A stretch of 64,000 nt of DNA from Owenia fusiformis (lineage: Eukaryota; Annelida; Polychaeta; Sabellida; Oweniidae). Positions 9,101 to 59,600 of this stretch are shown here, piece after piece (position 1 is the stretch's first letter; each line of letters begins with the position of its first letter). Under the pieces are notes generated by a model. The model worked only from the letters and a program-made list of their open reading frames with translations, did no database searches and was not told the DNA's origin. Position numbers and translations under genes: made by a program. The DNA lies in the NCBI GenBank assembly GCA_903813345.2, contig CAIIXF020000007.1, positions 9,741,730-9,805,729 on the forward strand, given 5' to 3'.

Positions 9101-12100
9101 ATCTTAGAGTTGGATTGAGTTTATTTGGACTGAGTAAATCTTGAGTTGGATTGAGTTTATTTGGACTGAGTAAATCTTGAGTTGGGTTGAGTTTATTTGG
9201 ATTGAGTAAATCTTTAAAACTCAATGCGAAGTAGGAGTTAGTTCCACAATTCTCTTAATCTCTTAATCAAAACATATAAAAGAACATAAACATTCACAAA
9301 CATTTCATTTGTTATTTGATAATTTGAAACAGTTGTTATTTTGCACGTGCTACACATGTACAGTCAGTAAACCATCCCTATAAGCATGTAAACAGAAATT
9401 GAATTCTGAGTCTACATTGAAATGTTCACATTGAGAGATCCTGAAAATGGGAATCCAAAGTATAAAGTGTTCACTTTTTTGAGATTAAGTTAAAGAGATA
9501 TGCTGTACATTCATGTAGTTTTATTACACATGCATGGTAACTTAACATTGCAATAAACAAAAAAATATCTCATTGAAAATGTCAAACCGACCTAGTAAAA
9601 CTTGTAAGTACATAAAATAATGAAAACAACGTAAAAGTTTAAATGAAGGAAACCAATACATTCAGAGAATCAATAAAAATGTATGGAAGTTTGGAAATGA
9701 AATAAATGTGGCGACCCCTTCTTTTGATATGCACAACTTGAAGTATCGTTTACAAAAAGGAAGTAAATGAAAACCTTTTTGTAATTCATCTCAATTGTAC
9801 CAGTAGGTGACTCACTAAAATATCTTTAAACTCTCCTGAAGATAAGCAAAATTATTTTTGCACTTCAGAATAAACCTACATTTGATGAGTTTTTTTGATC
9901 TAGTTAGATCTATTTTAAATTATATTGAAGTAAAGTAAAACATGAATACATGAACATCCTCATAAAGTGAACACATCAAAATGTTCATATTAGGGAAATA
10001 TAAACAAATGTTTTACTATATCTGGTTAAGTTTTAAAGATCACATTGGCTCCCATGTTATCAGGACATCATATGTAACCACCTTGCAATCTGCAAATGTT
10101 TTCCAGTCCCAACATCATTCACTTTAGCGTTTAGACAGATTTTACCATATAATAGGACACAGTATGCTTTAAGGATGACCTTTCAATGGTTGTGCAGGTG
10201 TGAAGTACATAAACTTATAAACCAGTTGTTTTTTCTAAATTTCTCAACAATGAAGAAGCTCTACTTTATCCAACATTTATATCCATGTAAACATTGTAAA
10301 GTGCCGACTGCAACCACCTTCAAAGTTCACAGTTTCTTGTTCAAGATCTCTTGATTTCTAGATTTTCAATAAATACCCATTATAACATATATAATAAATA
10401 CACAACGTCCATGTATTGTGAAGACTGCGGTTAGTAACCACCTCCAAAGTTCAAAGTTTCTCCATCCAGATCTAATTTCAAATCTTTGTCAAACTATGCC
10501 ACCGAGTCCTTATTACATTCTCTCAAGTTTTGTAAAATTTTCCGAAATTCTAACCACCAAGCAAATGCCGAATCTGGTCTTGTTTTTCTAATCTAGACAG
10601 ATAGTAATTAGCAACATAGTTATTGGTAACATTTCTCTTCATTCCGTTGAGGTTTCGGCTATTTCTAAATTCCAACTTGCAAAAGCTGAATGTCAACATG
10701 TATCCAGGCCTGTTACATCACATAGCTGGTTGGCTGGTCTGTTCATGATTCTGGCAAAGCTCTATTTTGTGTACAGTACACCTACATAAACTTTACGTTA
10801 ATAATGTGCATGTATATATTATATGTTAATTAAGTATACAACATGGAAATTAATGTATCCACTGTATTTATATAGAACATATTATTCTTATTCATATTAT
10901 TATATGTACATAAACTCTGTTAATAATGTGCATGTATATATTATATGTTAACCAGAACAAAGGCAACGCCAAAGCGTAGCGAATCCCATCGAACAGAAAT
11001 GGCTGGCATTTTTACAAACGAAGCGCAAATATCATAAAACAACACACCAGAAAGGCCACCATTTTCAAAATGGTTGCTCACTAGCCAAGTTGTCATCAGA
11101 AGAAATAATATGCTTTTAAGTAGCCACCTCTAAAATTTTTTGAAAAATCGCACACATACTTGTAAAATAACACACGTAAAAATGGTGGCCATTTTTCAAA
11201 ATGGCCGACTACTCCCCAAAGTTTTATTAGACAATGTGCCATGCTTAAAGTATTCACATATCAAATATGAACAAAATCGCTCCACTACTTTTCTTGTAAT
11301 AGTAAAATACGTTAAAATGGCGGCCATTTTTCAAAATGGCCACCTTCTACCAAAAGCGTCATTAGAAATAGACGGTGTTCCATGCTTATAGTATTCACAT
11401 ACCAAATATGAACAAAATCGTTCCACTACTTTTCGAGTTATAGTAAAATACATTAAAATGGCGGCCATTTTTCAAAATTGTTTTCAAAATGGCCGCCTTC
11501 TACCAAAAGTGTCATAGGACAGTGTACAATGCTTATAGTATTCACACACCAAATATGAACAAAATCGCTCCACTATTTTTAGAGTTACAGTAAAAATCGT
11601 AAAATGACGAGTAAAGGTCGCCATTTTTCAAGATGGCTGCCATGTGCTTTTTAATATCTACATTTGTAGCATTATTAATGTCCTTTATAATTTTTTTTAC
11701 ATTTAAAACATATTGCTATTACAGTTTTACATATTGCACCTAAATTACTATAAAATTGTCACTAAAATGGCCGCCATTTTGAAATGAGTGGCCATTTTGA
11801 AAATCGGCTTTAGAGCAGAACTTCTACCCTCATAGGGTATATGTGTACGAAATATGAACAAAATCGGGCCAACGATATTTGAGTTATTGCCCGGACGGAC
11901 GGACGGACGGACGGACGGAGGCGTTCCCTATATCCCTCCGAACTTCGTTCGATGGGATAATTAAGTATACAACATGGAAATTAATGTATCCACTGTATTT
12001 ATATAGAACATATTATTCTTATTCATATTATTATAAGTACATAAACTCTGTTAATAATGTGCATGTATATATTATATGTTAATTAAGTATACAACATGGA

Positions 12101-15100
12101 AATTAATGTATCCACTGTATTTATATAGAACATATTATTCTTATTCATATTATTATATGTACATAAACTCTGTTAATAATGTGCATGTATATATTATATG
12201 TTAATTAAGTATACAACATGGAAATTAATGTATCCACTGTATTTATATAGAACATATTATTCTTATTCATATTATTATATGTACATAAACTCTGTTAATA
12301 ATGTACATGTATATATTATATGTTAATTAAGTATGTAACATGGAAATTAATGTATCCACTGTATTTATATAGAGCATATTAATGTATACATAAGTTTAAC
12401 ACTGAGATGATTATGTACAGTATATATCACTTCTGAGGGAAGATATGAATAAACTTCCAAGGGATGTAACCTTTAACTATACCCTGGGACTATACCAAAT
12501 ACTGTACATAGTGAATAAAGGATTTATCTAATGATCAATGTCAGGTAGTTGAATTTTCAATTTGTAATTAAAAATAAAAATGTGTTAAAATGCTTTGTGA
12601 CTACAGTCTTAAACCAAAGTACAGTATAAATATTATATAAGAAATTAAGTGTAGTGTATCTGTATGAATACTGTATATGTTCATAGGTGTAGTGTATCTG
12701 TACATAAGTATACTATATCTGTATATACATGTACTGTATACTGCATCTGTAACAATAAATGAAACACAGCATAAATGCTCTTTTACTGTAACCATCTCAC
12801 GATAGATCAGTGGGAAACCACAGAAAACTGAAGATGTATTAAATCACATGCTCACATGTAAAATGAGTCCCCACTTATCTCAATCACAAGGGTAGAAGAT
12901 AAAAATATCCATATAAAACAGTCTTCAGTAGAAAAATAATGTTATCCTTAGGATGAATGGAGTTGTTCATGTATTAGATCTTCTAATATAATACTGTATT
13001 GGTACCATTTCAGCGGGACTTGGTACTTTTTACGTGTCTCAGTACTCATTTGATTTCTTTGTTCTCATGGGTATCTTAGTATTTATATATTTTGGTACTT
13101 ATTCTGTGTCTTAGTACCAAGATATGGAATATATACCATCTCATATCTCGATATGTCTATGGTGTCTTGGTACTTTTACACTGTGGTACTCTTTCATCTA
13201 GTTGGATGACAAGATTTTAAACTGGTTTTACAAAATAAAATATGTTCTTCACATTCTGATATCAAATGTCCTATCACAGTAGGATGCAAGGAGAGAGAGA
13301 AGGTTTGGCTGACCAAAATGTTACATAGCACTCTGTGATCATATTCACTGATAGCTAATCATACATATAATACATGAACATAATTAATATATAATATCAT
13401 CAAATTACAATCCTATAGATTGGAAGGGATGTATCTAGAATTTCTATATAATGCTTCATTCTGTATTACACACTGTGTTATACTCTCATGAGAATTTGTT
13501 ATATTCATTCAATCATTATCACCATTGCTCACCAATGATCACATTTCATGTAGATAGTGCATAACTTAATACTGAAGTCTCGCATCATCCCATGTGACCC
13601 CTCACCCCCCACCCCCAAATATCCATCTCTGACCTCTGAAGAAAGGAGAGCAAACAAATATGGGAACCAAATATTTGATACAAGACTATATTTGGACTAC
13701 CCTATTCTAGAGGTTGATTCTGGGTCTTTTAAAGAGCCCAGTACAAATCTCTGTTTCTCAGGGTTTATTTGAAATGATCCTTTAAAAATATTACACAATC
13801 ATGCAAAATCACAGCCTTCTATTGATAACATTTTTTATGAAAAATAGCAGCCATTTTGAAATTCAGCTGTCATCTTTCAAATTTCCTTTATTGGTTTCTT
13901 TCTAGAAGGTTGATAGTTTGAGGAAAGAATGATGTGATGAGTATCAGAATGTGAAAACCCCATTTATATGTAGAACTGAGTAAAATGTAATAATGTGGTA
14001 ACACTGGTAAGCTTACAAATAATTCACATTCCATTGTGTATTAACAATTTCATGTTGTGCAGTATTGCAATACATAATTTATAAGTTCCAACCATGCTTT
14101 GTACTTACAACCATGATTGAATTCTACATCTAAGGCATATGAGAAGTATACGTCAATTAATTACGTTGAAAACATAGAGAAGCCTCAGTAAGGCGCCTTT
14201 GAAAAATTGATAAATACAGTGATCTCCCCACCACAAGAGCAACTGGGTGTTCTACGCTGTTGCAAATTGAAATCAAATGCTACCCACTTGAAATTTGCTT
14301 GCACACTATCAAAAGAGTGAAATATTGAGATATGTTGACCAAAACTGGTAAAATTAGGAATTAGCATCCAATTTAAAAAACACTAGTAAAGATCACTGAA
14401 ATATGTATTGAATATCTATAAAAGTATGACATAACATTTTAAGAGTCATGGTACCTGAAAAAGGAGACTCTGAGCCTCTACAAGAATAATTTGAGCATTC
14501 TAGCTCAAATACCAAAGCTTCTAAAGATCTGACTTTGGGAAAAGGATTCACCTTTTTTTCAAATACTAGTAGTTTTTACACTAAGAGTTAAAACCCATTG
14601 CAATAATGTTTTCTGGTGCAACTTACATGTCTGAACATTACAAAAGTACAAATCTATGAATGTAGTATGAAACTAAAACCCACTTCCCGAGATATCAATC
14701 CAAAAAATGTAAAGAACATTTCCTTGATACATGTCTACTGTAGGTCATTGCGACCTATCTTACTTTTACTTCTTTCAAAAGGAAATTGGTTTCTTCATGA
14801 TTTCAGCCTTTTAGTTTTTATTTCCCAATTGGTAGCGACTTCTCCATCAATTTCCAATAAAAAGTAATTATGACATATGAAAAACATGAATAACATAGAC
14901 ACGGAACAAAGAACATGAAAGGAAAATAAAAATTCAATTTTGTCTATATGTATACAATATCTGAACCCTAAATATCGATAATAATTAGGCATGTTAATTA
15001 GTCTTGTACCAGGCCCATAATCATAATTTTTCCTGTGTTAATGTGTGTAAGAGAGTACACATGAGATTGATACCAGGCTACTTGTTAGTATCATGGGCTT

Positions 15101-24100: not shown

Positions 24101-27100
24101 ACCTGGATAGACAAATAGACAGACAGAGGGATGGCTTTTTATTCTATATACCTACTGAACTTTGTTTGGTTGAATAATATAACCAGAACAACGGCAACGC
24201 CAAAGCGTAGCAAATCCCATCGAACAGAAATGGCTGGCATTTTTACAAACAAAATATATAGCAAATATCATAAAACAACACACCTGAAAGGCCACCATTT
24301 TCAAAATGGTTGCTCACTAGCCAAGTTGTCATCAGAAGAAATAATATGCTTTTAAGTAGCCACCTATAAAATTCGCACACATGTACTTGTAAAATAATTC
24401 ACATAAAAATGGTGGCCATTTTTCAAAATGGCCGACTACTCCCCAAAGTTTTATTAGACAATGTGCCATGCTTAAAGTATTAACATATCAAATATGAACA
24501 AAGTCGCTTCACTTCATTTCGAGTTATAGTCAAAAATGACAGCCATTTTTTAAAATGGCCGCCTACTATCCGAAGTGTCATGAGACAGTGTGCAATGCTC
24601 AGGAGTATTCACATATCAAATATGAACAAAATCGCTTCACTACTTTTCAAGTTATAGTAAAACCGTAAAAATGATGGCCATTTTTCAAAATGGCTGCCTA
24701 CTACCCAAAGTGTCATTAGACAGTGTGCCATACTTATAGTCTTCATATAAAATATGAAACATACCAAATATGAACAAAATCGCTGAACTACTTTTCAAGT
24801 TATAGTAAAATACGTTAAAATGGTGCCATTTTTCAAAATGGCCACCTTCTACCAAAAGTGTCATTAGACAGTGTACCATGCTTTTAGTATTCACATACCA
24901 AATATAAACAAAATCGCTCCACTACTTTTCGAGTTATAGTAAAATACGTTAAAATGGTGGCCATTTTTCAAAATGGCCACCTTCTACCAAAAACAGTGTG
25001 CCATGCTTATAGTATTCACATACCAAATATGAACAAAATCGCTTCACTACTTTTCGAGTTATAGTAAAATACGTTAAAATGGCGGCCATTTTTCAAAAAA
25101 AAATTCAAAATGGCCGCCTTCTTCCAAAAGTGTCATACGACAGTGTGCCATGCTTATAGTATTCACATACAAAATATGATCAAAATCGCTCCACTACTTT
25201 TCGAGTTCTAGTAAAATACGTTAAAATAACGAGTAAAGGCCGCCATTTTTCATAGGTGTACAAAATATGAACAAAATCGGGCCAACGGTATTTGAGTTAT
25301 TGCCCGGACAGACGGACGGACAGACAGACGGACGGATGGACGGACGGAGGCGTTCCCTATATCCCTCCGAACTTCGTTTGATGGGATAATAAGATATTAA
25401 TGCAGAATGCTTACTCACTTCGAGAGCCATGTTAGATTTTGAAACTTATGGCTCTCAAACGGGGAAATAGACAGCTGAATAAAAGTGACCTTTTAGACAC
25501 GAATTAAGTCGATCAGCTGCCTACTTCTGTTCTCTAACTATGTAATACATCATTATCATCCTTCCGTGCAAGTATTGGAGCGCTGAAGTACTTCCTTTTC
25601 GATCAAGACTTGTAATTGTTAGTCGAATGAATGTTTTTACTGCCAAATTCCAATATGGCGTTTTCTGCTCGGACATTTCCGTGAATCTCCAGAGGTTGTC
25701 CGAACCTAATTATTCTCAAAATTCATTTCGTCCGTTGCGCATCTCGATCCTAGCAGACCGCCATATTGGAAATGGGTCGAAAAAAACATTCACTTGATGA
25801 ACAATTTACAAGTCTTGATCGAAAAAGAAGTATTTCAGCGCTCCAATACTTGCACGGATTGATGATACTGATGTAAGACACAGTTAGAGACCAAAAGTAA
25901 GCCGCTGAAATCTTTATTAATATTTTAAAGGTCACTATTACTAAGCTGTCCAAGTGCGGCGTGGGAAAGCTATCGTATCAAAATCTACATAACTTTCGCA
26001 GGAAGTAACAGAATGCTCCATTCATATAATAGGAACAGAACCTAGTTTTTAACTTAACATAAATATTGCTAAACAAACAAAAATACCTATTTTTCATTTG
26101 AGAACTATAAACTGTGATATGATATCAAAATATATGTTGGCCTTGAGGAACATTCTTGATAAATGTTTCATCTAATAGCTTTTAAGTAAATCTAATGACA
26201 TTCTGATGATAAAAGCCATGTCATATACATCAGATATATACAATTAAAGCAACTTATTGACTTAAACACCCCTGTATGCATGATGAACACCTCTGCAATA
26301 TGAAGACTTTTTCATTTTTCAAACCAATTCATAATCTAAAAGAATTCCCCTCCCCTCATATTTAGTTTTTACTGTTTACCTTAGAAGGGTTTTACCATAC
26401 ACATGCATGATAGATTAAATAAATGTAAATATCTGTTTTCTATTTCTAGTAAGGGAGTAAAAAGCAATTCTAAGAGCAAGCCAGTATCATCACCTATATG
26501 TATGGTCAAAGTACTTCTGTTAGTTGAAATGGTAAGTCTGTTAAAAAACTTAAATGTCGAATACATTTATAAAATATATATCAATGAACAAATATTTCAC
26601 TCTATTGAAGTGAACACCTGTACATCTTTCACAAGTGATATTCCACGAAGCCAGAAGGGCAAGTGGAATATCACCTTGTGAAAGTGCTACAGGTATTCAA
26701 CGAAAATAGAGTGAAATATTTGTTTTATTATATCACTGTCTAGCTAAACATCCCTAATATTATTAAGTCATTAAGTCTTCAGATATTTTTACGAATCTAC
26801 TCGGTTCGTCTGCCATTTTGACTTACACTGAACTAAATTATTTACACTGAACGAAAACAAATTCTTTGAAAATTCCCGGGAGCGTGGGATATCGCTAGAT
26901 ATCTCACGGTTGTCTTATCTGATTAGCATTGCCATTGAATATCGCCAGATATCCCACGACATGTGACCCGGTTTTGACCAATCATACTGTCGCTAGCTAG
27001 ATAGTGATAAAATAATTTCACATATAGTGCATGTTTGATCATTTATAAAGAGATGCATGATATTTTGAGAAAAACGCTGACAAAATGCAAATGGTTTTTC

Positions 27101-30100
27101 TTGAACTATATATCAAAGATTTCCAAGTTATTTTGTATAGATTCCCATGTCTTATTGGTAAAAGAATGCTAGATTCAACATACTCCCCCATATCAACCAC
27201 AAAGCAGGAACTAGACCAATAAGCTAACATAAATACTAGACTCTGTAGGAAATGAAAACAAATGAATTTGTTGAAAGAATGTATGAGATGACATGAACTG
27301 GGATGATATTATCTAAATCACTACAATATTCCAGTATTTTGACAAGATTTTCTTTAATCTGTTCTGATTAAAAAATCTTAAAAATCTTTTAAATATCAGA
27401 TTTTTGTGATTTTTCAAATTTCCTACCTAAGTTCAAGGTAATTCTGACAAAGGCATAGTTGTAACTGACTTGGTGAAGCAACTAGTTGATTTAAAGCGTG
27501 GATTGATATTACTTTGTTACAAGATTTCAGCAAGACAAACTCAATAGTAGATCAATAGTAGAGTTTACTAAAGGTCACTAATGAGTCATTTTCTTCATCT
27601 TATTTCATAGACTATACAAATTACAAATAAAATACAATATACTAGAAGTGAATTTATAGTGACATATGTGGAGAGAAAATATCCCGAAAAATGTGTCCAT
27701 TGTCCAGTGAAACCTGCATATTCAAACACCTCTCTTATCAGAATACCTCTTAATTTGAACGTCTTTTTTTAAATTAGACAGGTTTTACTGTATATCAATG
27801 ATGTAGCCACAAACATATATATAAAACAAAAATGGCTCACTAAAAGCCAAACTTCATCCAATGGGATAATTAATTAAATTTGGAGAAGGAGGTAATAGGA
27901 TAATTTTATAAGAAAGTCAATAAAACTCAATTAAAGTTAGTCCAGGAGTCAATCTGAAAACTAAATCCGTATTCATCAGGAATCCAAGATGTCATTTCAT
28001 TTGAATTATGTTTTGGGACAGCACCGATCTATAGACATTGTATATGTACCAAATTGTACAACTCCGAGTAAGACTTACCTGCCGCAGCCTGGCTCCCAAT
28101 GTAAGGAGAGAGGAGTTTGCTCTTCTTCTTCTCATATCCCTTCTGTGTTATATCACCTGAAAACATACGACAAAATGCAATCAATAAATGGTTACAGAGT
28201 TCCACATTGGCTTGTCATTTTGGTAGAATATTCATTTTCAATGTACAAAAATGACATCTTAAATAAATAAACATAAAGACATCAAGAGCGTCTGAAAAAG
28301 CAGATTCAAACCATTTTCCTGTTCTTCGAAAAAATTATTTCGTCTGAATAGCAATTTGCCAAATAAAATACAAACAACCAGTACAACTATGAAAACCTCA
28401 ATAAAATCTATTTTATAGTTCCACACTGAAAAATCTTTGCCTTTTTGTTCAGAATAGCAAAAGATTTTTTATAAAACATTATCGAGAGAATGTTGGCCAC
28501 ACAGAGATTTTGGGTACAACTACTGTAATGTATAGTTACCCCTATGCCGATCTATTTGCTCTGTTTTTTATTGCCAGGCTAACAAATATCAATAATAGAG
28601 AAATAAATTGGATGATATAAAATATGACAAAATGGAATGGGGATGGCTAATTGAGACTTGACAGTAATAGGGTAAAATATCCTATTTCCATCATATATTA
28701 TGGAGTCCAATTACGTACAGAGAATCTACATATACACAGAAGTGAATTATAATGTCCAGGGAATCTAGTACTAACTATTGTTTTGACTCAGCTGCATGTA
28801 CTGTACTGCACACTTGTTCCTGACTTTCAAATTACATTAAAACTTGTATATGCGAACATATTTCATCAGAATACTGTGCCATCAAAATTACAGTGAAACT
28901 TGTTTATTACATGGATTTATTTTAGAATACCCCACTACAGTTAAACATGTGGACAACTCTCTAAATAGAACACTGCTATTAAAATTACAGTAAAACTTGT
29001 AGACAGAATATATATTGGATATTAACAGAACATTGTTTTTAGAACCTTTAGATGTAAAAGTATACCCAGAACTCTAAATTAATAAATGATGTCCTGGGAA
29101 TGATTCTTGTGCCGCTTTGTTCAGACTCAAGGCATATACAATACTATATACATGTAATGCCGACCATATTATTCATGCTTTCATGGCTAACAGCTTTATT
29201 TTCAACAGTAAAACCTGTACATTAAAACACATCATAAGAATACTTCTAAAACAAATCTGAACTTCTCTTGATGTGAACAATTTGAACAATCAGCATCTTT
29301 CTCAACAGTGTTCAATTTTGACAATTTTACTGTTTATAAATAATATACATAGGGACTCGAATAAAAACTTCCTGATTCTAATTAACATCATATGAGGAAG
29401 AAAAATATATATTTTGATTCAATAGCCGTTATCTGCTCTAAAAAACACAGTATCAATGTCCTTGAATTTTATACATAGATTCCTATGCTTAAATTAAATC
29501 CATTTTTTATATAATTTCAATTTTGTTCATAGGGAGGATAAGAAATGGTACAAATTGACCCACTCTTGCAGAAATTTTATCAATTTTAGAGCTTCTTTGA
29601 ACTGACACATTTGCGAATAAAAAACATAGGGAATTACATTTATCCCCTTTTAAGACAACATTATTCTGACTGGTTTAGAAGATCAGGATCGTATGACATG
29701 AGGCCACTCAAGATTAAAGTTAGGTGCTATACTTCTAAAGATGTAATTTGAAGGTGAACCTTACCAGCCAGTTCCTAGTGTTTACCCTTTTCCATTCTAC
29801 TAGCCACACATCCCTCTAACTATAAATAACTAGAAAAACAGCAACTCCACGGAGTAGCAAATCCCACCGAACAAAACATGTTTTGATAAAAAAATTGAGC
29901 TAAATTCAGCCACTGGTATTTGAATTATCAAAGATTATGTCTTTAAGAAACATGGTTGCCATTTTGAAATTCAGCTGTCATCTTTAGATTTCTACTTTAG
30001 CAGAGAATGTCCGTCCAATGGTATCTGGGTTATCAAAGATTACTTTTTTAATGAAAAATGGCAGCCATTTTGAAATTCAGCTATCGCCTTTGAAATTTCT

Positions 30101-33100
30101 TCTGAAGCAGATCTCCCTTTTCCCTAAACATCAGCATATAAAATTGGAACCAAATCCAACCACTAGTATTTGAGTTATAATTAATTACGTTTTTTTACGA
30201 AAAATGGCGGCCATTTTGAAATTCAGTGGCCATTTTGAAAATTTATTTTTGAGCAGAACTTCTTTGTCTCTAGGCATCAGCATATAGAATTTGAACCAAA
30301 TCCGTCAACTGGTATTTGAGTTATCAAAGGTTACGTTCTTTTATGAAAAATGGTGGCCATTTTGAAATTTAGCTACCACCTTGAAAATCCCTTCTCGAGC
30401 AGAGCTCCTATGTCCCTAGGCATCATCATGTAAAATTTGAACCAAATCCATTCAATGGTAATTGAGTTATAAAAGATAATATTTTTTTATGAAAAATGGC
30501 CGCCATTTTGAAATTTAGCTGCCATCTTGAAAATCCTTTCTCGAGCAGAGCTCCTATGTCCCTAGGCATCAGCATCTAAGATTTGAACCAAATCCATTCA
30601 ATGGTCTTTGAGTTATCAAAGATAACGTTTTTTTACGAAAAATGGCCACCATTTTGAAATTTGGTGGCCATCTTGAAAATGTCTTCTTGAGCAAGGCTCC
30701 TTTGTACCAAGGCAACAGCATATAAAATTTGAACCAAATCCATCCACTAGTATTCGAGTTATTAAAGATTATATTTTTTCTGAAAAATGGCCGCCATTTT
30801 AAATTAAGCGGCCATATTGAAAATTCCTTCTCGAGCAGAGGTCCTACACCCATAAGGCATAAGCCTATAAAATTTGAATGAAATCCGTGAACCGGTATTT
30901 GAGTTATCGCCCGGACACACGAACAGACGGACGGACGAACGGACGGACGAACGGACGGACGGACGGACGAACGGACGGCTTTTCGATATCCCCCTCGAAC
31001 TTCGTTCGGTGGGATAATAATCAGTTCTGATGCTGACAACATCTTAACAATCTCAAATGTATCTTCCATGGTATTTTATTAGAGTGGGAATGTAAATTGA
31101 ATGTTAGCTGCTTATATGTAGAACATTTAGTACAAATTCTGTTTATATTATGTAGTCTAGCTCATTTGAAAAGAGTATATTCCTTGTAATAACTACTAAA
31201 ATGATTATGTTATACATACTGGTACAATAATAGCTCTCGATATAATAATAATTATGAAATAACATAAAATCAATAATTGTATATTATATTTTCCACAATA
31301 CAAATATCCTCAGTATGAGTAGTTAAATCTCAATGTATGAAATACTACATACAGTACATAATCAGTGAAATTGAAAGCAATGGTAAGGTTTGTGTCCAAG
31401 GGATTCTTACACAGTTAACAAGGCCTAAGAAATTACTTCGGAACATATATTAGGGTTGAGGTTACATAGGTTAAATTCTTGGTAATAGATTAAGATAGTT
31501 ATTTGGTGAAATTCTGACCAACAGTCCATGGTTTGATGGTAGCTTCAACTGATATTTATGAGAAAACCTTTCATGTATTACACCATTACCCTGGATCCTT
31601 ATAGAGTAACCATACTGGCCTCTGAATATTAAATACAGTTTTAATCCAATTTAGATCTTAATAATCTCAAGAGTAGCTTTACTGGTCTTTTTGAATGTAA
31701 AATGAATGCTAGTTCTACTTATAGGTAGACTCTTCATTCTGATTTAATCTAGTAAAGGTCAAAGAACTATATTTTATGAAAGAGTATAAATAAAGCAGAA
31801 CTCTTGAAATGCATGCTCCAGTCATTTTGATCCATTAAGGCACATAATTACATAAATGACTGAAGGAATACACTGGTTTAACAACTACATACTATAATTG
31901 TACTTTAAAGTATTAATTTTAAAGATAACCATAAAAGCAACCTTGTGATATTTATATTAAATTGGTCCATGTCGGGCAACAGAGTATCGAGTTTGAATAC
32001 AAGCTTCCAATCCTCCTTGATTCTGACATTACAGTTCTCACAGACTCTGCCTTAGTACCATATGAACTCCTCTCACTCTATTTTACCCCCTCCCCCTAAG
32101 GGCTTACATCAGAGTGTGTGGATCTCACTCTGATTTTCATCTCTCTTTCACCTAAGAATGATCTATTAGATAAGCAAACTAACTAAACTTTGCACCGAAG
32201 TATAGATTTGGATTATAATATCATGTATGCAGAATTTTGTATGATTTTGATCAAAATGCTACATGTAATAATATTCTGAGTCAACAAAAATGGTGATAGA
32301 GCATTCTGAACACGTATTTGAAAATGAAGGAGGAAGTACATGTGCGCTTGATGCAATATCTTGCATATCCCCTTATTATATCAAGATCCAAATATGGTCC
32401 AATTAAAAATTACACAATCACCCTAACAGCCTTTGAGTTGAAGGTTTATCTTCACTTCAATGTTCTCATAACCTCTATATGACCTAATGGCTATTTAATA
32501 ACACCCTTTGATCATTTAATATATTAAACAGATTAGTACTCTGCAGTTAATCTTGAACTATGGTTGGCAGATAAGGTTTGGTGGGTTATTTCAGGTAACA
32601 TAAAATATTAGACAGACTCCATGTTTCAAATCAAATATTTCCTATGAATACACGATACACCAATAAAAGCTAAATTCAATTCAATCAAGTAGTCTTAGAA
32701 ACAATAATTTTAAATGAGTCAGTTTCTATTATAAGGTCAGAGTTAATGCATTGACAGCCCTTTTTTACTTTGGCATAAAAGCTGCTATAAATACTTACTT
32801 AAAATACCCCAGCGACTAATAAGAAAGTTTTTCACATCATTTCTATAGCTGTGCCCAGTTTCACTAAATACCAAATCGGCAAAAATATCTTGTATTAGGC
32901 TTCCCTGGATTTCATCCTCTCTTGAAGGGATTAAATCCCAATTATCAATATCCATTTCTAAATTCTGATATCCTTAATCGAACTAAACTCAACTTTCTTG
33001 TGCTCTTTTGTATAAACAAGGTACCGAATTGCTTCAAGAAACAGGATTGAAAAGATCAATTCATTTTCATTTTATAGCTCTTTTATTTATTTAATTTGTC

Positions 33101-50600: not shown

Positions 50601-53600
50601 TCCCAACTCCGATACAGAAAGATCTATAAATACAATTTGGCACCCAGCTCTTCTGTTTCTAATTCTTGATAGGCATGTTGCCAGATATGATTCTTGGAAT
50701 ACAACATTAATCTAAAACCTCTGAAAATACAGGTCAGAAACTAGGTTGAGTGTTATACAGTTACAATGTTTGTTTTCATAATTTTTTTGTTTAATAAGAA
50801 CACATATGATTATTGATTTATGTTCATGTACTCCAGAACTCCTCTGTCCATGTGCATGTAATCTGTGTGTATACAGGGTGTTCCCAAATAATAGTACCCA
50901 CATGCGACAGGAATAACCATGGGTTGGGATCGAAAGATTTGTCTGCCATGGTGGAGCATGCTATTTATTTTTCATAAAAGAACTAAATTATATGTAAGTC
51001 TAGTAGGTCACTAAATGATACAGATACCTTCACTGAAAGAGATAACTAATGTTCAACCATTAAATACGCATTTTCTTTTCGTATTTCAAAGCAACTTGCT
51101 ACTGATTTTGATTGCTCAGAAAATTTCACTAGAGGCAATCTCTGCGAGGTTCCATTTATTAGTTCAGTTTTATGCGCATGCGCAACAAAATCCAGCAATT
51201 GATTAGTTAAAATTATTAAGACGAATGCGCGATTAATAATCGCGACCAATCATAGGACTCGTACCAATTACTGCTTTGTACTGTAGCAACTAGGGATTGT
51301 CCTATCACAGCCTTGTACTATTTTGATCGGAAATCAACTTCTGGAAAAAAAAACTTCGAAAGAAAATATTGTTTTTCTTTTAGAAATAGAATATCCTTCG
51401 TTTATTTAGCCGATTTTTGACCAAATAAAAGACTGAAGGTAAGATCTTTTTCCGAGTCTATCAATTTTGTTAATGAAATCACAGGACTTTGCGTCCCAGG
51501 GACGGATCTTTCAAATTTTTTGTTTTGGAGTCCCTTCATCAAAATCTGGGTCCTCCTAATGTTAGACATGTTACTGAAAGCCCTGATACTGGTATATCTT
51601 AACTTTTTAATGATATTATTTAGAAATGTTTTCAGTATATAACTCTGAAGGTATTCGTGAGATCTAGATGTATTGCGTCCTTTTAATTTTTCATAAAAAA
51701 TAATGTTTGACAAATGTTTGACAAATTTGTCTGCCATGGGGGAGCAGTTTCAAATGTAGCTACATCAGGAATTCTAATATATCTTTTACAACTATTTTTT
51801 GAAGGAGTGAAATCTGAGAATGTTGTTTGGCTGTTCCAGTTATTCGATAACAACATGAATTTTCATCTAGGCAAAATGTTGACCATGGCATTTCAATGTC
51901 ATTCAGGGTCTGCAGTACAATGTTGTAATATTGGTGATGATACTAAAACATTTTTTACATTTATCAAATTTAAAAAAAATTCTAAGTCAGTATTAATGAA
52001 CATTTTTAAGAATGTCTTATCTTTTATTAGATGTTTGGAAAAAGAAATTGAAAGAAGAAGTAATTACTGCTTCTTAGATGGCTACAGGTGTTGTAACCAA
52101 ACTGACCTGTGCAATGCATATGTGTGTAGTTACAGAAATACAGCACAACTCTCAGGTCAGTAGTATCAGATTGGGTTACCAATGAGTGGCTTAAAGGAGT
52201 GCTATGGCATCAATGGGGATTTTGATTCACTGCAATTTTATCCCATCGAATGAAGTTCTTAGGGATATGGAGATTGTCCATCTGTCTGTCCAGGCAGATA
52301 TATAAAACCCAATATCATGTATACATGTACATGCATTTTATGCGTATACCCCTGTGAATACCACTTTGTTTGAAAAAATGATTTTGAAATTAGCTGGCGA
52401 TTTAGTATCTGTATTATTAAAGCAGATATGAAATGGTATTTTTAACCTTAAGGAATCAATATAATTTTTTGATAAATGTATTTGGACATGTTTTCTCATC
52501 AGTAGTGTGAAAATTATTTCACTCTAACGATCGTTATAGCTGCTTAATAAGCAATATTCGAATTGGTTGTGACATTATTGGCCCCCACGTGATCTCTCAC
52601 TGGTCCCCACGTGGCCCAGTTTTGGCCCATTAGATCATAACGTCATAATGCCAAAATGTTTTGTTATTTGTTTACACAACAATCCTATGGTTGCTGTGAC
52701 GTTGTGATTACTAAGGAACCAATAAACCAAAGCTATATTTTGTATATGACGTTACTAATCACATTGGGGCCAATTTGATTGATCAGTTAGTTTTATTTCG
52801 TTATCTATGACCGTTAGCAGTTATCTAACATTTATTTTATAATGGCTATCGCAAGAACTCTACTTCGGGCTTACAATAGAGAAAACTGCATTTTTGTAGC
52901 TGCAAGTTGAGAAAAGCTATTTCAGTTGTCCTTTAATTTGTTTTAAATAGAAAAAAGTTATAGGATATTGATTTAGTTTGAAAGTAGTTGAGCAATTTTG
53001 TTCATATTTGATATGTGAATATTGAAAGCATGGCTCACTGACTCATAGGTTCTTATATGGTATATCTGGAAAAATAAATAATGTAACATTGTTGAAATAG
53101 GCTTGATTACTTGGAAGCATATTACTCTGTCTGATGACAATATGTCTGATAGGCAGCCATTTCCAAAAAGGTGGCAATTTTATATGTGTTATTTTACATT
53201 TTTTGCTATAACTGGAAAAGTAGCAGAATGATTTTGTTATTTTTTTTGTTTTTCAATATCGCAGCAATAAAGTAATGTTGCCTGACAGTGATTAGTTGTT
53301 CAATGGGATTTGCTACATCTTGGCGTTACTGTTATCTAGCTATAACTGTTTCTACAATTCTTGTAATGTAACAATACTCTTTTTCAGAAAGAGCTCCATC
53401 TATCTCAGAACCTGACAGGTTAAGATTAATATTGGGCCTAGTGTTTGGGACATTGTGCTTGGTAATTCTCGCAATATCCATCGCAGTTTGCTTACGTATG
53501 AGACATTGTCACGAGCAGAGAAATCATGAAAATTATCCCCACAATGGATTTGTTTATCATACTTATCAGCCAGATGAGACCATTGGTAAGACAGAAACAT

Positions 53601-56600
53601 CCCTGAAGGAGATGATAGTGTCGGGGATGTATTCGGGATCTTCTGGGTCAGGTTAGTGCCTTGTTTTCAAAAAATCTTGGCGAGATCACTTTTTTTTTGA
53701 TATAACATCTAGTAAACCTCATTTGACAGGTTCTACATGTAACCACTTTCAACAATATTTTTTGAGCGATGTCGCTGTCACCATGAGGTTGTGAGTTGGA
53801 GACACGTGAACTTGCATAAAAATGCATTTATTCGTGAGTTGGAGACGCGTGAACTTGCATAAATACATTTATTCGTGAGTTGGAGACGTGTGAACTTGCA
53901 TAAATGCATTTATTTGTGAGTTGGAGACGTGTGAACTTGCATAAATGCATTTATTCGTGAGTTGGAGACGCGTGAACTTGCATAAATGCTTTTATTCGTG
54001 AGTTGAAGACGCATGAACTTGCATAACGTGAGTTGGAGACGCGTGAACTTGCATAAATACATTTATTCGTGTGTTGGAGACACGTGAACTTGCATAAATG
54101 CATTTATTTGTGAGTTGGAGATGTGTGAACTTGCATAAATGCATTTATTCGTGAGTTGGAGGTGCGTGAACTTGCATAAATGCTTTTATTATTTTGAGTA
54201 CTCTGACTTTTTTCTTGATAGAGCCCCCATAATATGTTATGATTTCAGAGAATGAAATGATGTGAATGGAAGATTTGTTTAATATTTAATGTCAGACTGT
54301 ATTGGTTGTGTTACTTGTTACTTGTAGTATTTAGACTATGACATATATTATATAATGAATGAACTGATATGAGTGCCAGAAATATAGCAGTATATGTGAC
54401 ATTATATAAGAGATCCAAACACAAAACATCCCAGTCTATATAGGTCAACCTGTCTGGTCATGACAACTTATAATTGAATGGTGATTCTTATTAGAATAAA
54501 TACATACATCTACAGTAATTTGAAATTAGAAATTAAAAATTAGAACATTTCATAATTTTATTTTCATTTGCATAGATATAATAGCTTGAATCAAGACCTA
54601 CTCCTTTTCCATCTGTGTTACCAGACTCACTCTCTTCTCCCCTTGCTTGTGTGGGAAAGTTCAGATAAAGGGGATGCATGTATTGCAGTGACCCTCCCCC
54701 CTCTGCTGTCTGTCAGTGTAGGACTGGCAATCCCGGATTTTAAGATGCTATATACAGTGATCTCCTCAGCATTAAAACAAGTAGGTGCAGCACCCACCTG
54801 AGATTTTGAAAATAGGCTTGTACCCACCTGAAAATCCATTTGCACCCACTTGAAAAATTGACATATTTTTGACCAATTTTGGTCTGAATTGTGAAACTAA
54901 GAATTTTGTACCCACCTGAGAAAAAATCTTTAAGAGATCACTGATGCAACAAAATTTAATACAATGTAATTTAGACTGATGATAATGTTACATATTTTCA
55001 ACTCATATGAAGAATGCAAAGATACATTCCCCGATTCCTTGAAGGCCTTTTGTTTGTGCAGACACATTCTCTGAATGTTATCAGGCCAGTTATCTGTTGA
55101 TAGTGTTTATAAATTGCCAATATATCTGTATTAAATTCATGGATTTGTCTTGAACTCCTGAAACCTCAGGATTTGAGAAAATAATTGCCTACTCTTTTAC
55201 AATGCCTTCAGGCGACCGAAGGGATTTACTAAAAACTTAATAATGAAATGAATAAAAAATATGAATATGAATAAAAAATTGATTACTAAATCTAACATGG
55301 TATCATAGTTAGGTAGTTTTTTTTGTACAGACTAGTATGTGATTGTCATGCTATGACATCTAAGGAGTCTTTAAAAATATATTTATATCATAGAGATATA
55401 TGAATATATAAGCACATATGCCAAAAGGGAAGGGTGACTAAAAACTTTAAGGAAACCTAACAAGAAAAGCAAACTGTAAGTGTAAATCTGTCATAAGAAA
55501 AGTAGACCCTATATATCCCAAAACCATGATCTAACGTGAAAAGAAACAATGTCTAACATCCCCCTCCCCCCTCCAATTGAGGACCAACAATATCACAACC
55601 CAGGACCAGAACACCAAGGGACATTTCATTCATACTGAGTCATTACAATACATGTTGAAGAATGCTTTAAAGTTCTCTCAACGTTTAAGTCGAACAAAAC
55701 ACCGGGGAGTGATGGCCTTTCGGCCGAATGGTATAAAGCATTTTGGAACGACATTTCGACAGGTGTTGTTGACAGTTTTAACCTCTCACTTAGAGTTGGA
55801 CTCTTATCTGTTAGTCAAAGGCAGGGCGTAATATCTTTGATTGAAAAATCGGGAAAGGATTTATCTCTGCTTAAAAACTGGCGTCCAATTTCATTGTTAT
55901 CCCATCGAACGAAGTTCGGAGGGATATAGGGAACGCCTCCGTCCGTCCGTCCGTACGTACGTCCGTCCGTCCGTACGTACGTACGTCCGTCCGTCCGTCC
56001 GTCCGTCCATCCGGGCAATAACTCAAATACCGTTGGCCCGATTTTATTCATATTTTGTACACATATACCCTATGGGGGTAGAAGTTCTGCTCGAAAGCCG
56101 ATTTTCAAAATGGCCGCTCATTTAAAAATGGCGGCCATTTTAGTGCCGATTTTACAGTAATTTAGGTGCAATATGTAAAACTGTAATAGCAATATGTTTT
56201 AAATGTAAAAAAAATTATATAGGACATAAATAAAGCTAGAAGTGTAGATATTAAAAAAGCACATGGCAGCCATCTTGAAAAATGGCGGCCTTTACTCGTT
56301 ATTTTACGATTTTTGCTGTAACCCGAAAAGTAGTTGAGCGATTTTGTTCATATTTGGTATGTGAATACTATAAGCATGGCACACTGTCTAATGACACTTT
56401 TGGTAGAAGGCGGCCATTTTGAAAAATGGCGGACATTTTGAAAAATGGCCGCCATTTTAACTTATTTTACTAAAACTCGAAAAGTAGTGGAGCGATTTTG
56501 TTCATATTTGGTATGTTAATACGTATAAGCATGGCACACTGTCTAATGACACTTTTGGTAGAGGGCGGTCATTTTTCAAAATGTCCGCCATTTTAACTTA

Positions 56601-59600
56601 TTTTACTATAACTCAAAAAGTAGTGGAGCGATTTTGTTCATATTTGGTACGTGAATCCGTATAAGCATGGCACACTGTCCAATGAGACTTTTGGTAGAAG
56701 GCGGCCATTTTTCAAAATGGCCTCCATTTTAACGTATTTTACTATAACTCAAAAAGTAGTAGAGCGATTTTGTTCATATTTGGTATGTGAATATTATAAG
56801 CATGGCACACTGTCTAATGACACTTTTGGTAGAAGGTGCCCCTTTTGAAAAATGTTCGATGGGATTCGCTACGCTTTGGCGTTGCCGTTGTTCTGGTTAA
56901 ATATAGATTATAAAATTGTTTCTAAAGTGGTAAGTAAGAGAATTGAAGCGGTTCTCTGCGCGATTATTGAACCCGATCAGACTGCCTTTGTCAAAGGAAG
57001 ACTGATTGGCAAAAACATTCGATTTATGGAGGATTTACTAGTATATACTAGAGAAAGGAAAATACCAGGCATTATTTCTTTAATTGACTTTGAAAAAGCA
57101 TATGACAGTATCGAATGGAGTTTTATTGATTTTGCGTTGCGGTACTTTAATTTTGGCGATGAGTTAATCCATTGGGTTAAGCTCTTTTACACTGATATCA
57201 ATAGCTGCGTATTGAACAACGGGCATTCTACTGGGTGGTTTAAAGTACATAGGGGTGTCCGTCAAGGAGATCCGTTAAGTTGCTCCCTTTTTGTTATATG
57301 TATTGAGGTACTTGCCCTTAAGATCAGGCAAGATGAAAATGTGAAAGGAATCGATCTAAATGGCCACACTCAGAAATTGATTATGTATGCCGATGACACG
57401 TCTCTAATACTCAAAGATGCAAATTCCCTTGAAGCTGCCTTAAGCATTTTCGAAAATTTTTATCAATTATCGGGCCTAAAAATTAATAAGGAAAAAACCG
57501 AATGTTTTAGTGTTGGTGCCAACCATGATGGTGTAAATCCGAATATTGGGGGCTGTATTTGGGTAAAGAGGCCAAGTAAGTTTTTAGGCATCAGTGTATC
57601 ATACGATCCAGAGCATAATAAGGCGATAAATTTTGACCGGAAAATAGAATCGTTGAAGAGGATTCTGAACCTCTGGGGTAAGCGAAATCTCACCATTTAC
57701 GGTCGTATTATGATAATCAAATCCCTTGCAGTTTCACAGATCGTATATTCTATGTCCATGACTGTTACGCCCGACAGCATCATTTCAAAGGTGAATACTT
57801 TGATTTATAATTTTTTGTGGAAAGGGAAATGGGATAAAATAAAGCGAAATTCTGTGGTCGGATCTTATGATCAGGGGGGCATTCGTATGGTGAACATGAC
57901 CTCGATGGAAAAAGCACTAAAAATTATGTGGCTTAAACGATTCCTTGATGACCAACTTAGCCACTGGAAAGTGATTCCGCGAATATATTTTGAACATTTT
58001 GGCGGTCTTAATCTACTTCTGCAATGTAGATATGATGTACGCCTATTTAAACAAAAAATCCCAGATTTCTATATGAATGCTCTTTCATATTATTCAACGG
58101 TAAGTGAGACGGAGGAACCAAAAAACAGTTCTGAGGTAAAGAGCGAGATACTATGGCATAATAAATACATACTTAGGGAGGGTAAACAGATATTTCAAAA
58201 AAGCCTTTTCGAAATGGGGGTTGTTCAAATAAATGATTTACTAAATGGGAATGGTAGTTTTATGGAACTGAATGATTTTAAATACAAGTTCCAGGTGGAT
58301 ATAAACTTTTTAGACTACATTAGCCTAATATCTTCCATTCCAAAGAAATGGAAATCAATTTTAAAAAGCGATCCGAAAGCGAAGTGTGAAACCGAATATA
58401 CTGAAAGCATCGAAGAGTTTTTTATTGGTAACAAAACGGTCCACATCAAAAATTTGAATACAAAAATGATTCAATTGTACATCAATCAACAATGTTTTTC
58501 TGAATCAATAAGCGTTAAGCGCTTATGTTGCAAATATAATGTTAACGCTCGAGATATGTGTTCAATGGTATATGACATAACCAAAAACCACGCTTTTTGG
58601 GAATTACAGTATAAGATTATTAATAATATTTATGCCTCAAATTTGTACCTTAAACTTGTTGGTATACGTACGAATGATAAATGTGATTTTTGCGGCCAAA
58701 AAGAGACGATTGTCCACCGTTTTTGGGAGTGCAAGAACATCAAAAGTCTTTTAAAATATTTCGGAGATCAATGGAGAGAAAGGGATATACACTTAAATGA
58801 GCAACACGTCATTGTTGGGTATTTCGATAGGAAACATTTTAGAAAGTTTAACTTTTCCGTTTTGATATTAAAATACTATGTTCATAGAGCTTATTATTCC
58901 AACATGCCACTGACTTGTGTTGGATTTCAAGCCTATTTAAACGAAGGTCTCAGACTGGAAAATATTTTTGATGAGTGATTGTATGTGTGTGGTATGCATG
59001 ATATGAATGAATGTCGTGTGAGTGGAATGGGTCTGTGTGTCGAATTTGGTATTCTTTGTATTTCTATTTCATTTGTAAAAACGGCTTACAGCAAATCACT
59101 TGTATCCTTGTATCCTTGTGTAGTGAAAATGTAAATTGAGAAAAAAAAAAAAAAAAAAAAAAAAATGAAAAATTGATAGCCAATACTCATAACATCAAAA
59201 TCCAGTCTCGAAGTCCATAGGCAATTCAAAGGGTCAACATCTGTTCGCAAAGCCATCATCATAATGAGATATATAAATAATTTTTGCTATCTTTCCTTAC
59301 AATTTTTGAGTGTAAAATTTCTAATTTAGTTTGTCATCAGTTAAAACACCAAGAAAGTTAATATTATCCTTCTTTGTAATGTTTTTGCCATCAATTTGTA
59401 TTTTGATTTCTTCAGGTTTATATGTATATCAATAAGATTTCTATTTTTTTATTAGTAGATTTTAATTAAATATAACCTCCTTTAATGAAGTTTAATTAAA
59501 TGAAGAAAACTTTCTTTTCAAGTGGGTGTATAATTCGCATTTTCACAATTAAGTCTAAAATTGGTCACGATATGCCCATTTTACATGATTTTTCTCATTT

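What the first reader, a model, noticed from the sequence alone, without database searches (positions are those of the whole stretch)
10951..11959. Helentron-like family recognised by covarying termini
Across copies A (10951-11959), B (24182-25388), C (29829-31016) and the LINE-inserted copy (55898-56897) the end near CTRR has an 18-nt hairpin placed 11 nt before CTGG or CTAG. In copy C the stem differs (ACTCC/GGAGT instead of ACGC/GCGT) but still pairs. The other terminus (TCCCATCGAAC) appears inverted at a subterminal site, and in copy C both sides changed together (TCCCACCGAAC / GTTCGGTGGGA). Paired change on both sides supports selection for structure. This layout is the asymmetric terminal inverted repeat of Helitron2/Helentron; internal tandem units plus ACGG microsatellite match bivalve pearl or HINE elements.
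Basis: partly seen in the sequence, partly recalled or inferred. Interest (0 to 1): 0.75.

Follow-up and report, generated by a model that had tools for sequence, protein, structure and literature searches.

The report
Helentron-derived repeats with covarying ends
Four repeats in this window are protein-less members of a known kind of rolling-circle jumping gene (Helentron/HINE); the same genome holds a protein-coding relative with the same ends, and subfamilies show matched base changes at the two ends.

Summary
Copies A, B, C and the LINE-inserted copy are non-autonomous Helentrons (HINEs); a fifth, decayed copy lies at 52238-53339. Such ends are abundant: 3,329 and 1,597 genome matches to two 3'-end patterns, controls 0. 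A 13.8-kb Helentron on C4, its Rep, helicase and endonuclease genes interrupted by stops, carries both HINE ends. Ten paralogous empty sites run across its joined flanks (three read), so both ends belong to one insertion. A second Helentron on C5 shares the 5' end. No target duplication of 3 bp is seen; the target is TNA/TT. Covariation is real but narrow: one column of the asymmetric inverted repeat has three matched states (T-A 32, C-G 19, A-T 4, mismatch 1 of 56 copies) and two stem pairs of the 3' hairpin co-change. The local arm of the 5' hairpin differs in step. Single inserted copies decay uncompensated (1 of 43 compensated), so any constraint acts on source elements. The Rep ORF runs opposite to the terminus-defined direction, a variant already reported. 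New member of a known kind.

The parts
10952..11960 (-). HINE copy A (T-type ends, CTGG), inserted in a 122-bp satellite array
   Evidence: exact 40-base empty site in three neighbouring satellite units
11932..11958 (-). copy A 5' hairpin (ATCCCATCGAACGAAGTTCGGAGGGAT), holding the 5' inverted repeat 11947-11957
   Evidence: fold -6.6 kcal/mol, 2 of 200 shuffles as good
10984..10994 (-). copy A subterminal 3' inverted repeat (GTTCGATGGGA)
   Evidence: complement matched on + strand
10963..10980 (-). copy A 18-nt 3' hairpin; CTGG at 10952-10955
   Evidence: fold -4.9 kcal/mol, 1 of 200 shuffles as good
11159..11580 (.). copy A tandem units of about 141 bp
11892..11919 (.). copy A (CGGA)n = (GTCC)n microsatellite near the 5' end
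24183..25389 (-). HINE copy B (T-type, CTGG)
   Evidence: tandem units 24406-25227 and microsatellite 25305-25348
29830..31017 (-). HINE copy C (C-type, CTAG)
   Evidence: tandem units 30010-30907 and microsatellite 30926-30978
55897..56896 (+). HINE copy inserted in a LINE reverse transcriptase gene (T-type, CTGG)
   Evidence: tandem units 56428-56836, microsatellite 55938-56013; joined flanks give one open frame matching RVT_1
52238..53339 (+). decayed fifth HINE copy (ends TTATCCCATCGAAT... and ...TGTTATCTAG)

Best explanation
The repeats are HINEs: protein-less relatives of an endonuclease-bearing Rep-helicase Helentron present in the same genome. Layout in the terminus-defined direction: TTA, 5' inverted repeat folded in a 5' hairpin, (GTCC)n microsatellite, tandem units of about 140 bp, subterminal 3' inverted repeat, 18-nt hairpin, CTRG. 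Shown: layout, ends shared with a Helentron, clean insertion at TNA/TT without a 3-bp duplication, paired changes among subfamilies. Inferred: the Helentron's Rep-helicase-endonuclease acts in trans; it nicks at the TT before ATCCC; one strand is peeled off by rolling-circle replication; the 3' hairpin followed by CTRG marks the stop; pairing of the 3' with the 5' inverted repeat opens the 5' hairpin and fixes the end point (the model of Bao and Jurka, PMC3627910).
For: C4 Helentron, 13.8 kb, has both ends; 10 of the 41 matches to its joined flanks run across the junction at 92-97% identity, and the 3 of these 10 that were read are continuous. C5 Helentron: Rep, PIF1 and endonuclease domains, then tandem units, microsatellite and a TCCC end identical to copy A over 69 bp. 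Copy A has exact empty sites in three satellite units; the LINE copy's joined flanks are open and match RVT_1 across the junction. Three bases before TCCC are TTA in 54 of 56 copies, three bases after CTRG are TTA in only 22 of 56. Inverted-repeat column 6 pairs in 55 of 56; shuffles mean 25.4, 0 of 5,000 as high. Hairpin: 92.6% of cells pair against 85.8% shuffled, covariation score 0.240 against 0.122, 0 of 500 for both. The local 5'-hairpin arm goes with column 6: A in 100 of 100 and C in 98 of 100 listed.
Against: C5's hairpin/CTRG end was not found in the 6.7 kb upstream of its ORF, and the C8 relative shows neither end in the 5.2 kb read downstream. The C4 genes carry stops. Inverted-repeat columns other than 6 and the CpG columns 7-8 show no covariation (438 observed, 438.1 expected). 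On the hairpin, the number of pairs changed on both sides (2 against 1.9) and of extra pair types (7 against 6.5) do not exceed shuffles. Only 13 of 25 third-family hairpins have all six Watson-Crick pairs. A 2-bp TT duplication cannot be excluded (TT on both sides in 49 of 56).
Confidence: 0.92

Rival explanations
1. MITEs of a DDE cut-and-paste transposon (PIF/Harbinger type) with a TTA target duplication.
For: All four window copies read TTA before TCCC and TTA after CTRG; inverted repeats exist.
Against: Over 56 copies the 3' trinucleotide is TTA in only 22 (TTT 16, TTG 9, TTC 4, others 5) while the 5' one is TTA in 54; triplets flanking TTATCCC...CTRG agree no more often than shuffled (14 against a mean of 12.8). 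The inverted repeat is subterminal at one end. The relative with both ends encodes Rep-helicase-endonuclease.
Confidence: 0.02
2. The matched changes at the two inverted repeats reflect a shared protein-binding site, not base pairing between the ends.
For: Two inverted sites bound by one protein would change together without pairing; only one column carries the signal.
Against: The local arm of the 5' hairpin also differs with column 6, and the separate 3' hairpin shows paired changes; these suit pairing better, though local arms may be mere lineage markers.
Confidence: 0.4
3. Subfamily markers only: a few lineage-fixed differences inherited by many copies, with no selection for structure.
For: Few independent events: three states at column 6, three at stem 6-13, two at stem 5-14; single copies decay uncompensated (42 of 43); two of five hairpin measures do not exceed shuffles.
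Against: The common subfamily states are all Watson-Crick pairs, and they occur in different combinations (inverted-repeat G with T-A and A-T stems, A with G-C and A-T stems), which by my hand count needs about four paired changes; structures slid by 1-3 columns score at most 0.072 against 0.240.
Confidence: 0.15

Closest known systems
HINE / DINE-1 with Helentron partners (PMC4067079; passages read)
   Same: Inverted repeats just inside the 5' terminus and subterminal at the 3' end, palindrome near the 3' end, TT target, no duplication, tandem repeats and microsatellite, Rep-helicase-endonuclease partner. As in DINE-1, the 5' repeat pairs with a separate downstream arm. A reversed Rep ORF is reported for Helentron-Da-40.
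   Different: Here the 3' repeat lies 31-32 nt from the end, against about 38-60 bp in the mite HINEs, and the mite repeats are themselves palindromic. The CTRG end resembles canonical Helitrons.
Helitron2 (PMC3627910; passages read)
   Same: Asymmetric terminal inverted repeats, 5' hairpin using the 5' repeat, 3' repeat upstream of a 3' hairpin, compensatory changes noted between two related elements, reversed Rep in some members.
   Different: The relative here has an endonuclease domain, the Helentron hallmark; three pair states at one column are seen rather than two elements.
Cg_HINE of Crassostrea gigas and Pearl (PMC7492417; passages read)
   Same: 5' subTIR, complementary arm, GTCY/GTCC microsatellite, satellite-like tandem units, 3' subTIR, palindrome.
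   Different: That paper could not relate its HINEs to autonomous Helentrons; here a Helentron with the same ends is found. Sequence similarity not tested.
FoHeli1/2 of Fusarium oxysporum (PMC5148889; passages read)
   Same: Asymmetric inverted repeats, hairpins at both ends, target TNAT followed by T or A, like the TNA/TT target here.
   Different: That paper found no endonuclease domain in the fungal elements; FoHeli1/2 start TCAG and end ATTTT.

Membership tests
HINE (non-autonomous Helentron) | Inverted repeat just inside the 5' terminus and subterminal at the 3' end | tested here: met
   5' repeat directly after TTA; 3' repeat 31-32 nt from the end; 11 of 11 columns pair in 41 of 56 copies
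HINE (non-autonomous Helentron) | Palindrome near the 3' end | tested here: met
   all six pairs Watson-Crick in 71 of 86; several predicted folds are weak (-2.2 to -2.5 kcal/mol, 19-31 of 200 shuffles as good)
HINE (non-autonomous Helentron) | TT target, no target duplication | tested here: met
   a 2-bp TT duplication remains undecidable, as PMC4067079 also says
HINE (non-autonomous Helentron) | No coding capacity | tested here: met
   (four window copies, frames of 60 aa or more): longest frame mostly within a copy is 166 aa, over the tandem units and flank of C; the 708-aa frame touching the LINE copy lies in the LINE
HINE (non-autonomous Helentron) | Autonomous-type partner with the same ends | tested here: met
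   of 3 close relatives: C4 both ends, C5 one end, C8 none in the part read
Helentron (the C4/C5 relatives) | Rep, PIF1-type helicase and a C-terminal endonuclease | tested here: met
   PF14214, PF05970, PF03372 above cut-off in C5, in two overlapping frames; C4 has PF14214 and aligns over residues 1-864 of the helicase-endonuclease query with 3 stops
Helentron (the C4/C5 relatives) | Rolling-circle transposition | not testable with these tools
   needs an assay
Canonical Helitron (Helitron1) | Insertion between A and T; no 5' hairpin or inverted repeats | tested here: not met
   TNA/TT target, 5' hairpin and inverted repeats present, though TC and CTRG resemble it
PIF/Harbinger | 3-bp TWA target duplication (recalled) | tested here: not met
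PIF/Harbinger | DDE transposase partner | not tested
   no DDE family was searched in the genome
Bivalve Pearl / Cg_HINE | Architecture | tested here: met
   against passages of PMC7492417
Bivalve Pearl / Cg_HINE | Sequence similarity of termini and units | not tested
   no such sequences were at hand

The most novel reading that the evidence does not exclude
The 5' inverted repeat is a switch: it pairs either with its local arm (5' hairpin closed) or with the 3' inverted repeat (hairpin opened), and source lineages keep all three sites compatible. Column 6 and its distal partner have three matched states (T-A, C-G, A-T), and the local arm differs in step with them. In the T and C types the predicted fold pairs column 6 with the arm (T with G, C with G); in the A type it pairs the neighbouring A instead, so the third local state is ambiguous. 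If right, strand-exchange recognition of Helentron ends is a selected and directly testable mechanism. (Odds lowered from 0.35 to 0.3 on rechecking the A-type fold.)
Probability: 0.3. Interest if true: 0.6.

Novelty: new member of a known kind. Interest (0 to 1): 0.36.

Why it matters
How Helentrons recognise and close their ends is unsettled. This genome offers thousands of copies in at least three subfamilies whose 5' repeat, local arm and 3' repeat differ in step, and a protein-coding relative with the same ends. That makes the published hairpin-switch idea testable by single and double base swaps. It also gives a Helentron relative for HINEs of the layout known from oysters, where the partner had not been identified (PMC7492417).

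Tried and rejected
PIF/Harbinger MITE: suggested by TTA on both sides in all four window copies, dropped after 56 copies. Other Helentrons as source: stretches of 10-18 kb at five other elements (C6:36.03, C12:19.51, C6:5.17, C6:27.12, C1:4.67 Mb) show only weak hits (5' motif with 2 errors; one 3' hit with 6 mismatches). Three remnants nearer the lineage (C11:25.62, C4:13.87, C4:27.70 Mb): no 5' end in the 7-9 kb read; the last has one variant hairpin end 8.3 kb in. Triple changes such as in L022 or L111 fall on CpG sites and may be independent decay, so they were not counted as covariation; stem positions 5, 6, 13 and 14 of the G-C type are CpG too, so of the stem changes only G-C to T-A at 6-13 is free of that doubt.

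Rows and choices: 97 copies were read: 60 loci chosen by the 3' end alone from the 100 listed (28 CTAG loci, which I took to be all in that list, and the first 32 CTGG loci; L075 was misread as the end of its neighbour L031, so 31 CTGG count), 33 hand-picked for stem diversity from the 100 listed, and 4 window copies. Eleven were removed for a shared 8-nt 3' flank (L063 and L076 probably by chance), leaving 86; L114, whose flank differs from L089's by one base, stayed in and may be a duplicate. Of the 86, 58 had a 5' match; L029 and L035 were dropped as false, leaving 56. One search used a looser 5' match (50 of 64, at least four of them false). The fifth window copy was not counted. Hairpin positions 1-4 and 15-18 or 1-2 and 17-18 were fixed by the search patterns, so their constancy says nothing.

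Literature: searches. One search (terminus letters) found 210 papers; the ten listed titles look unrelated and none was opened.

Full report
What is in the window. Four repeats of 1.0-1.2 kb share one plan. Read in the direction set by their ends, each starts TTATCCCA[T/C]CRAACGAAGTTCG..GGGATA (C has one more base in the arm), continues with a (GTCC)n microsatellite and tandem units of about 136-148 bp rich in AAAATGGCSGCCATTTT-like motifs, and ends GTTCG[A/G]TGGGATTYGCTAC..........TTGC + 7 nt + CTGG or CTAG. A, B and C lie on the minus strand, the LINE-inserted copy on the plus strand. A fifth, decayed copy lies at 52238-53339. The window belongs to an unnamed 498-Mb genome of 525 contigs, by its content that of an animal-like eukaryote (inference).

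Is it chance? No. The 11-nt terminus occurs 13 times against 0.63 expected, 0 of 100 shuffles as many; the 3' pattern occurs 4 times against 0.00. In the whole genome two 3'-end patterns with the stem left open match 3,329 and 1,597 times (up to 2 and 1 mismatches), controls 0. Three 5'-end patterns match 2,252 times (Y at column 6, up to 1 mismatch; all 100 listed have T), 887 times (A-type arm, column 6 open, up to 1 mismatch) and 293 times (C-type arm, column 6 open, exact), controls 0.

A protein-coding relative with the same ends. PF14214 finds 58 Rep matches in the genome, 57 over the cut-off. At C5:30796900-30818899 a Helentron has Rep (PF14214) in one frame and, in an overlapping second frame, PIF1 helicase and an Exo_endo_phos endonuclease. 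From about 0.9 to 2.5 kb past its second ORF come tandem units of the same kind, the ACGG microsatellite and a terminus identical to copy A over 69 bp. Its closest relatives are on C4 (93%, 81% and 93% identity in three pieces, two of them with stops) and C8 (93%, 90%, 82%, partial). C4:27741827-27755601 has both ends: GGGATTTGCTACGCTTTGGCGTTGCTGTTGTCTAG at one side and TTATCCCATCGAACGAAGTTC at the other; its hairpin-side 158 bp are 82% identical to copy A. To see whether the two ends delimit one insertion I joined its flanks: of 41 matches listed (40 of 1,042 candidates were scored), 10 run across the junction at 92-97% identity, ending 14-27 nt beyond it, and the three of these that I read are continuous there. 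C8 has neither end in the 5.2 kb read downstream; C5's second end was not found in the 6.7 kb upstream of its ORF.

Orientation. In both C4 and C5 the Rep-helicase-endonuclease reads toward the TCCC end, opposite to the 5'-to-3' direction defined by the inverted repeats. [quoted passage not shown]

Insertion. Copy A sits in a 122-bp satellite; three intact units carry its 40-base joined sequence exactly. Joining the flanks of the LINE copy gives an open frame of 133 residues in which RVT_1 runs across the junction. In 56 copies the three bases before TCCC are TTA in 54 and TAA in 2, but those after CTRG are TTA in 22, TTT 16, TTG 9, TTC 4, others 5; triplets flanking TTATCCC...CTRG agree no more than shuffled (14 against 12.8). 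So there is no 3-bp duplication. TT stands on both sides in 49 of 56, and a 2-bp TT duplication cannot be told from TT carried by the element, an ambiguity also described in PMC4067079 (passages). The target reads T-N-A-TT: T at -5 in 56 of 56, A at -3 in 42 of 56, close to the TNAT/T of Fusarium Helitron2 elements (PMC5148889, passages).

Covariation between the ends. For the 56 copies, inverted-repeat column 6 is T-A 32, C-G 19, A-T 4, A-G 1; shuffling partners gives a mean of 25.4 pairs, at most 39, in 5,000 shuffles. Without column 6 and the CpG columns 7-8 there is no signal (438 observed, 438.1 expected). All 11 columns pair in 41 of 56. The local arm of the 5' hairpin differs with column 6: an arm GTTCGGTAGGGATA goes with A in 100 of 100 listed of 887, an arm GTTCGAGGGGGATA with C in 98 of 100 listed of 293 (one T, one A). 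The T, C and A types fold into a 5' hairpin at -6.6, -7.7 and -7.3 kcal/mol with 2, 4 and 0 of 200 shuffles as good. In the T and C types column 6 pairs with the arm (with G); in the A type the best fold pairs the A next to it.

Covariation in the 3' hairpin. On 86 copies (43 distinct) 92.6% of cells pair against 85.8% shuffled, and the covariation score is 0.240 against 0.122 (0 of 500 for both); structures slid by 1-3 columns score at most 0.072. Against this, the number of pairs changed on both sides (2 against 1.9, 408 of 500) and of further pair types (7 against 6.5, 277 of 500) do not exceed shuffles, and shuffles ignore relatedness. Of six pairs, two never vary (the search patterns fixed them), two vary on one side, and two change on both sides: stem 5-14 (C-G, T-A) and 6-13 (G-C, T-A, A-T). 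T-A at 6-13 is a double transversion; A-T and the 5-14 change could be CpG decay. All six pairs are Watson-Crick in 71 of 86: 58 of 61 in the first two families, 13 of 25 in the third, which was picked for diversity. Stand-alone folds of 18-nt hairpins range from -4.9 (1 of 200 shuffles as good) to -2.2 kcal/mol (19 and 31 of 200), so some are weak.

Decay of single copies. Genome-wide, 43 first-family ends with an otherwise matching frame carry A or C at stem position 6; 1 of the 43 has the matching partner. Individual insertions therefore drift, and the matched changes are those of source lineages. The combinations of states seen need, by my hand count, about two paired changes at column 6 and two at stem 6-13.

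How it most likely works. Shown: ends shared with a Rep-helicase-endonuclease element, clean insertion, structured ends with matched subfamily changes. Inferred: Helentron proteins act in trans, nick at the TT before ATCCC, peel off one strand by rolling-circle replication, stop after the 3' hairpin at CTRG, and use pairing of the 3' with the 5' inverted repeat, which opens the 5' hairpin, to set the end. Bao and Jurka proposed this switch and noted compensatory changes between two elements (PMC3627910, passages). Shared protein binding at both repeats remains an open rival.

Known or new. The layout is that of HINEs and of oyster Cg_HINEs, including the GTCC-type microsatellite and satellite-like units; the oyster paper could not relate its HINEs to autonomous Helentrons (PMC7492417, passages). 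Here the link is made by shared ends and empty sites. Among the listings I saw no such link for this layout, which is not proof that none is in print. I file this as a new member of a known kind, with good material for testing end recognition.

Noticed in passing
G000 contigs C13, C515, C505, C158 and others: Dozens of other Helentrons with open frames of about 1,200-3,400 aa, many on small contigs, several per contig on some; most of the 52 matches reach past the endonuclease region. Suggests expansion of another Helentron lineage with other ends.
   Followed up: partly
window 24000-24179: Copy B lies next to what looks like an older, decayed HINE 5' end (...AACTTTGTTTGGTTGAATAA), a head-to-tail neighbour.
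   Followed up: no
window 10700-12381: 122-bp satellite array interrupted by copy A.
   Followed up: partly
L084, L096, L099, L101, L104, L105 and L089, L090, L095, L115: Groups of 3' ends with identical 3' flanks (ataatata; ttgaagga): HINE ends that seem to have been spread inside another repeat, not by their own transposition.
   Followed up: no
L079:8327-8362 (C4:27706326): Variant 3' end with hairpin GCTAAGCCTTTGGCGTAGC, where the usual T-T mismatch is a T-A pair.
   Followed up: no
window 55700-58978: LINE with a reverse transcriptase, interrupted by the HINE; a 708-aa frame (56852-58978) follows.
   Followed up: partly
L009:1-3099: N-terminal part of the C5 Helentron ORF1 has a charged repeat (RSRRTNEQMEEDRGVDKTRKT) and a DUF6570 domain (PF20209).
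   Followed up: no
window 53791-54190: 41-bp tandem repeat, 10 copies.
   Followed up: no
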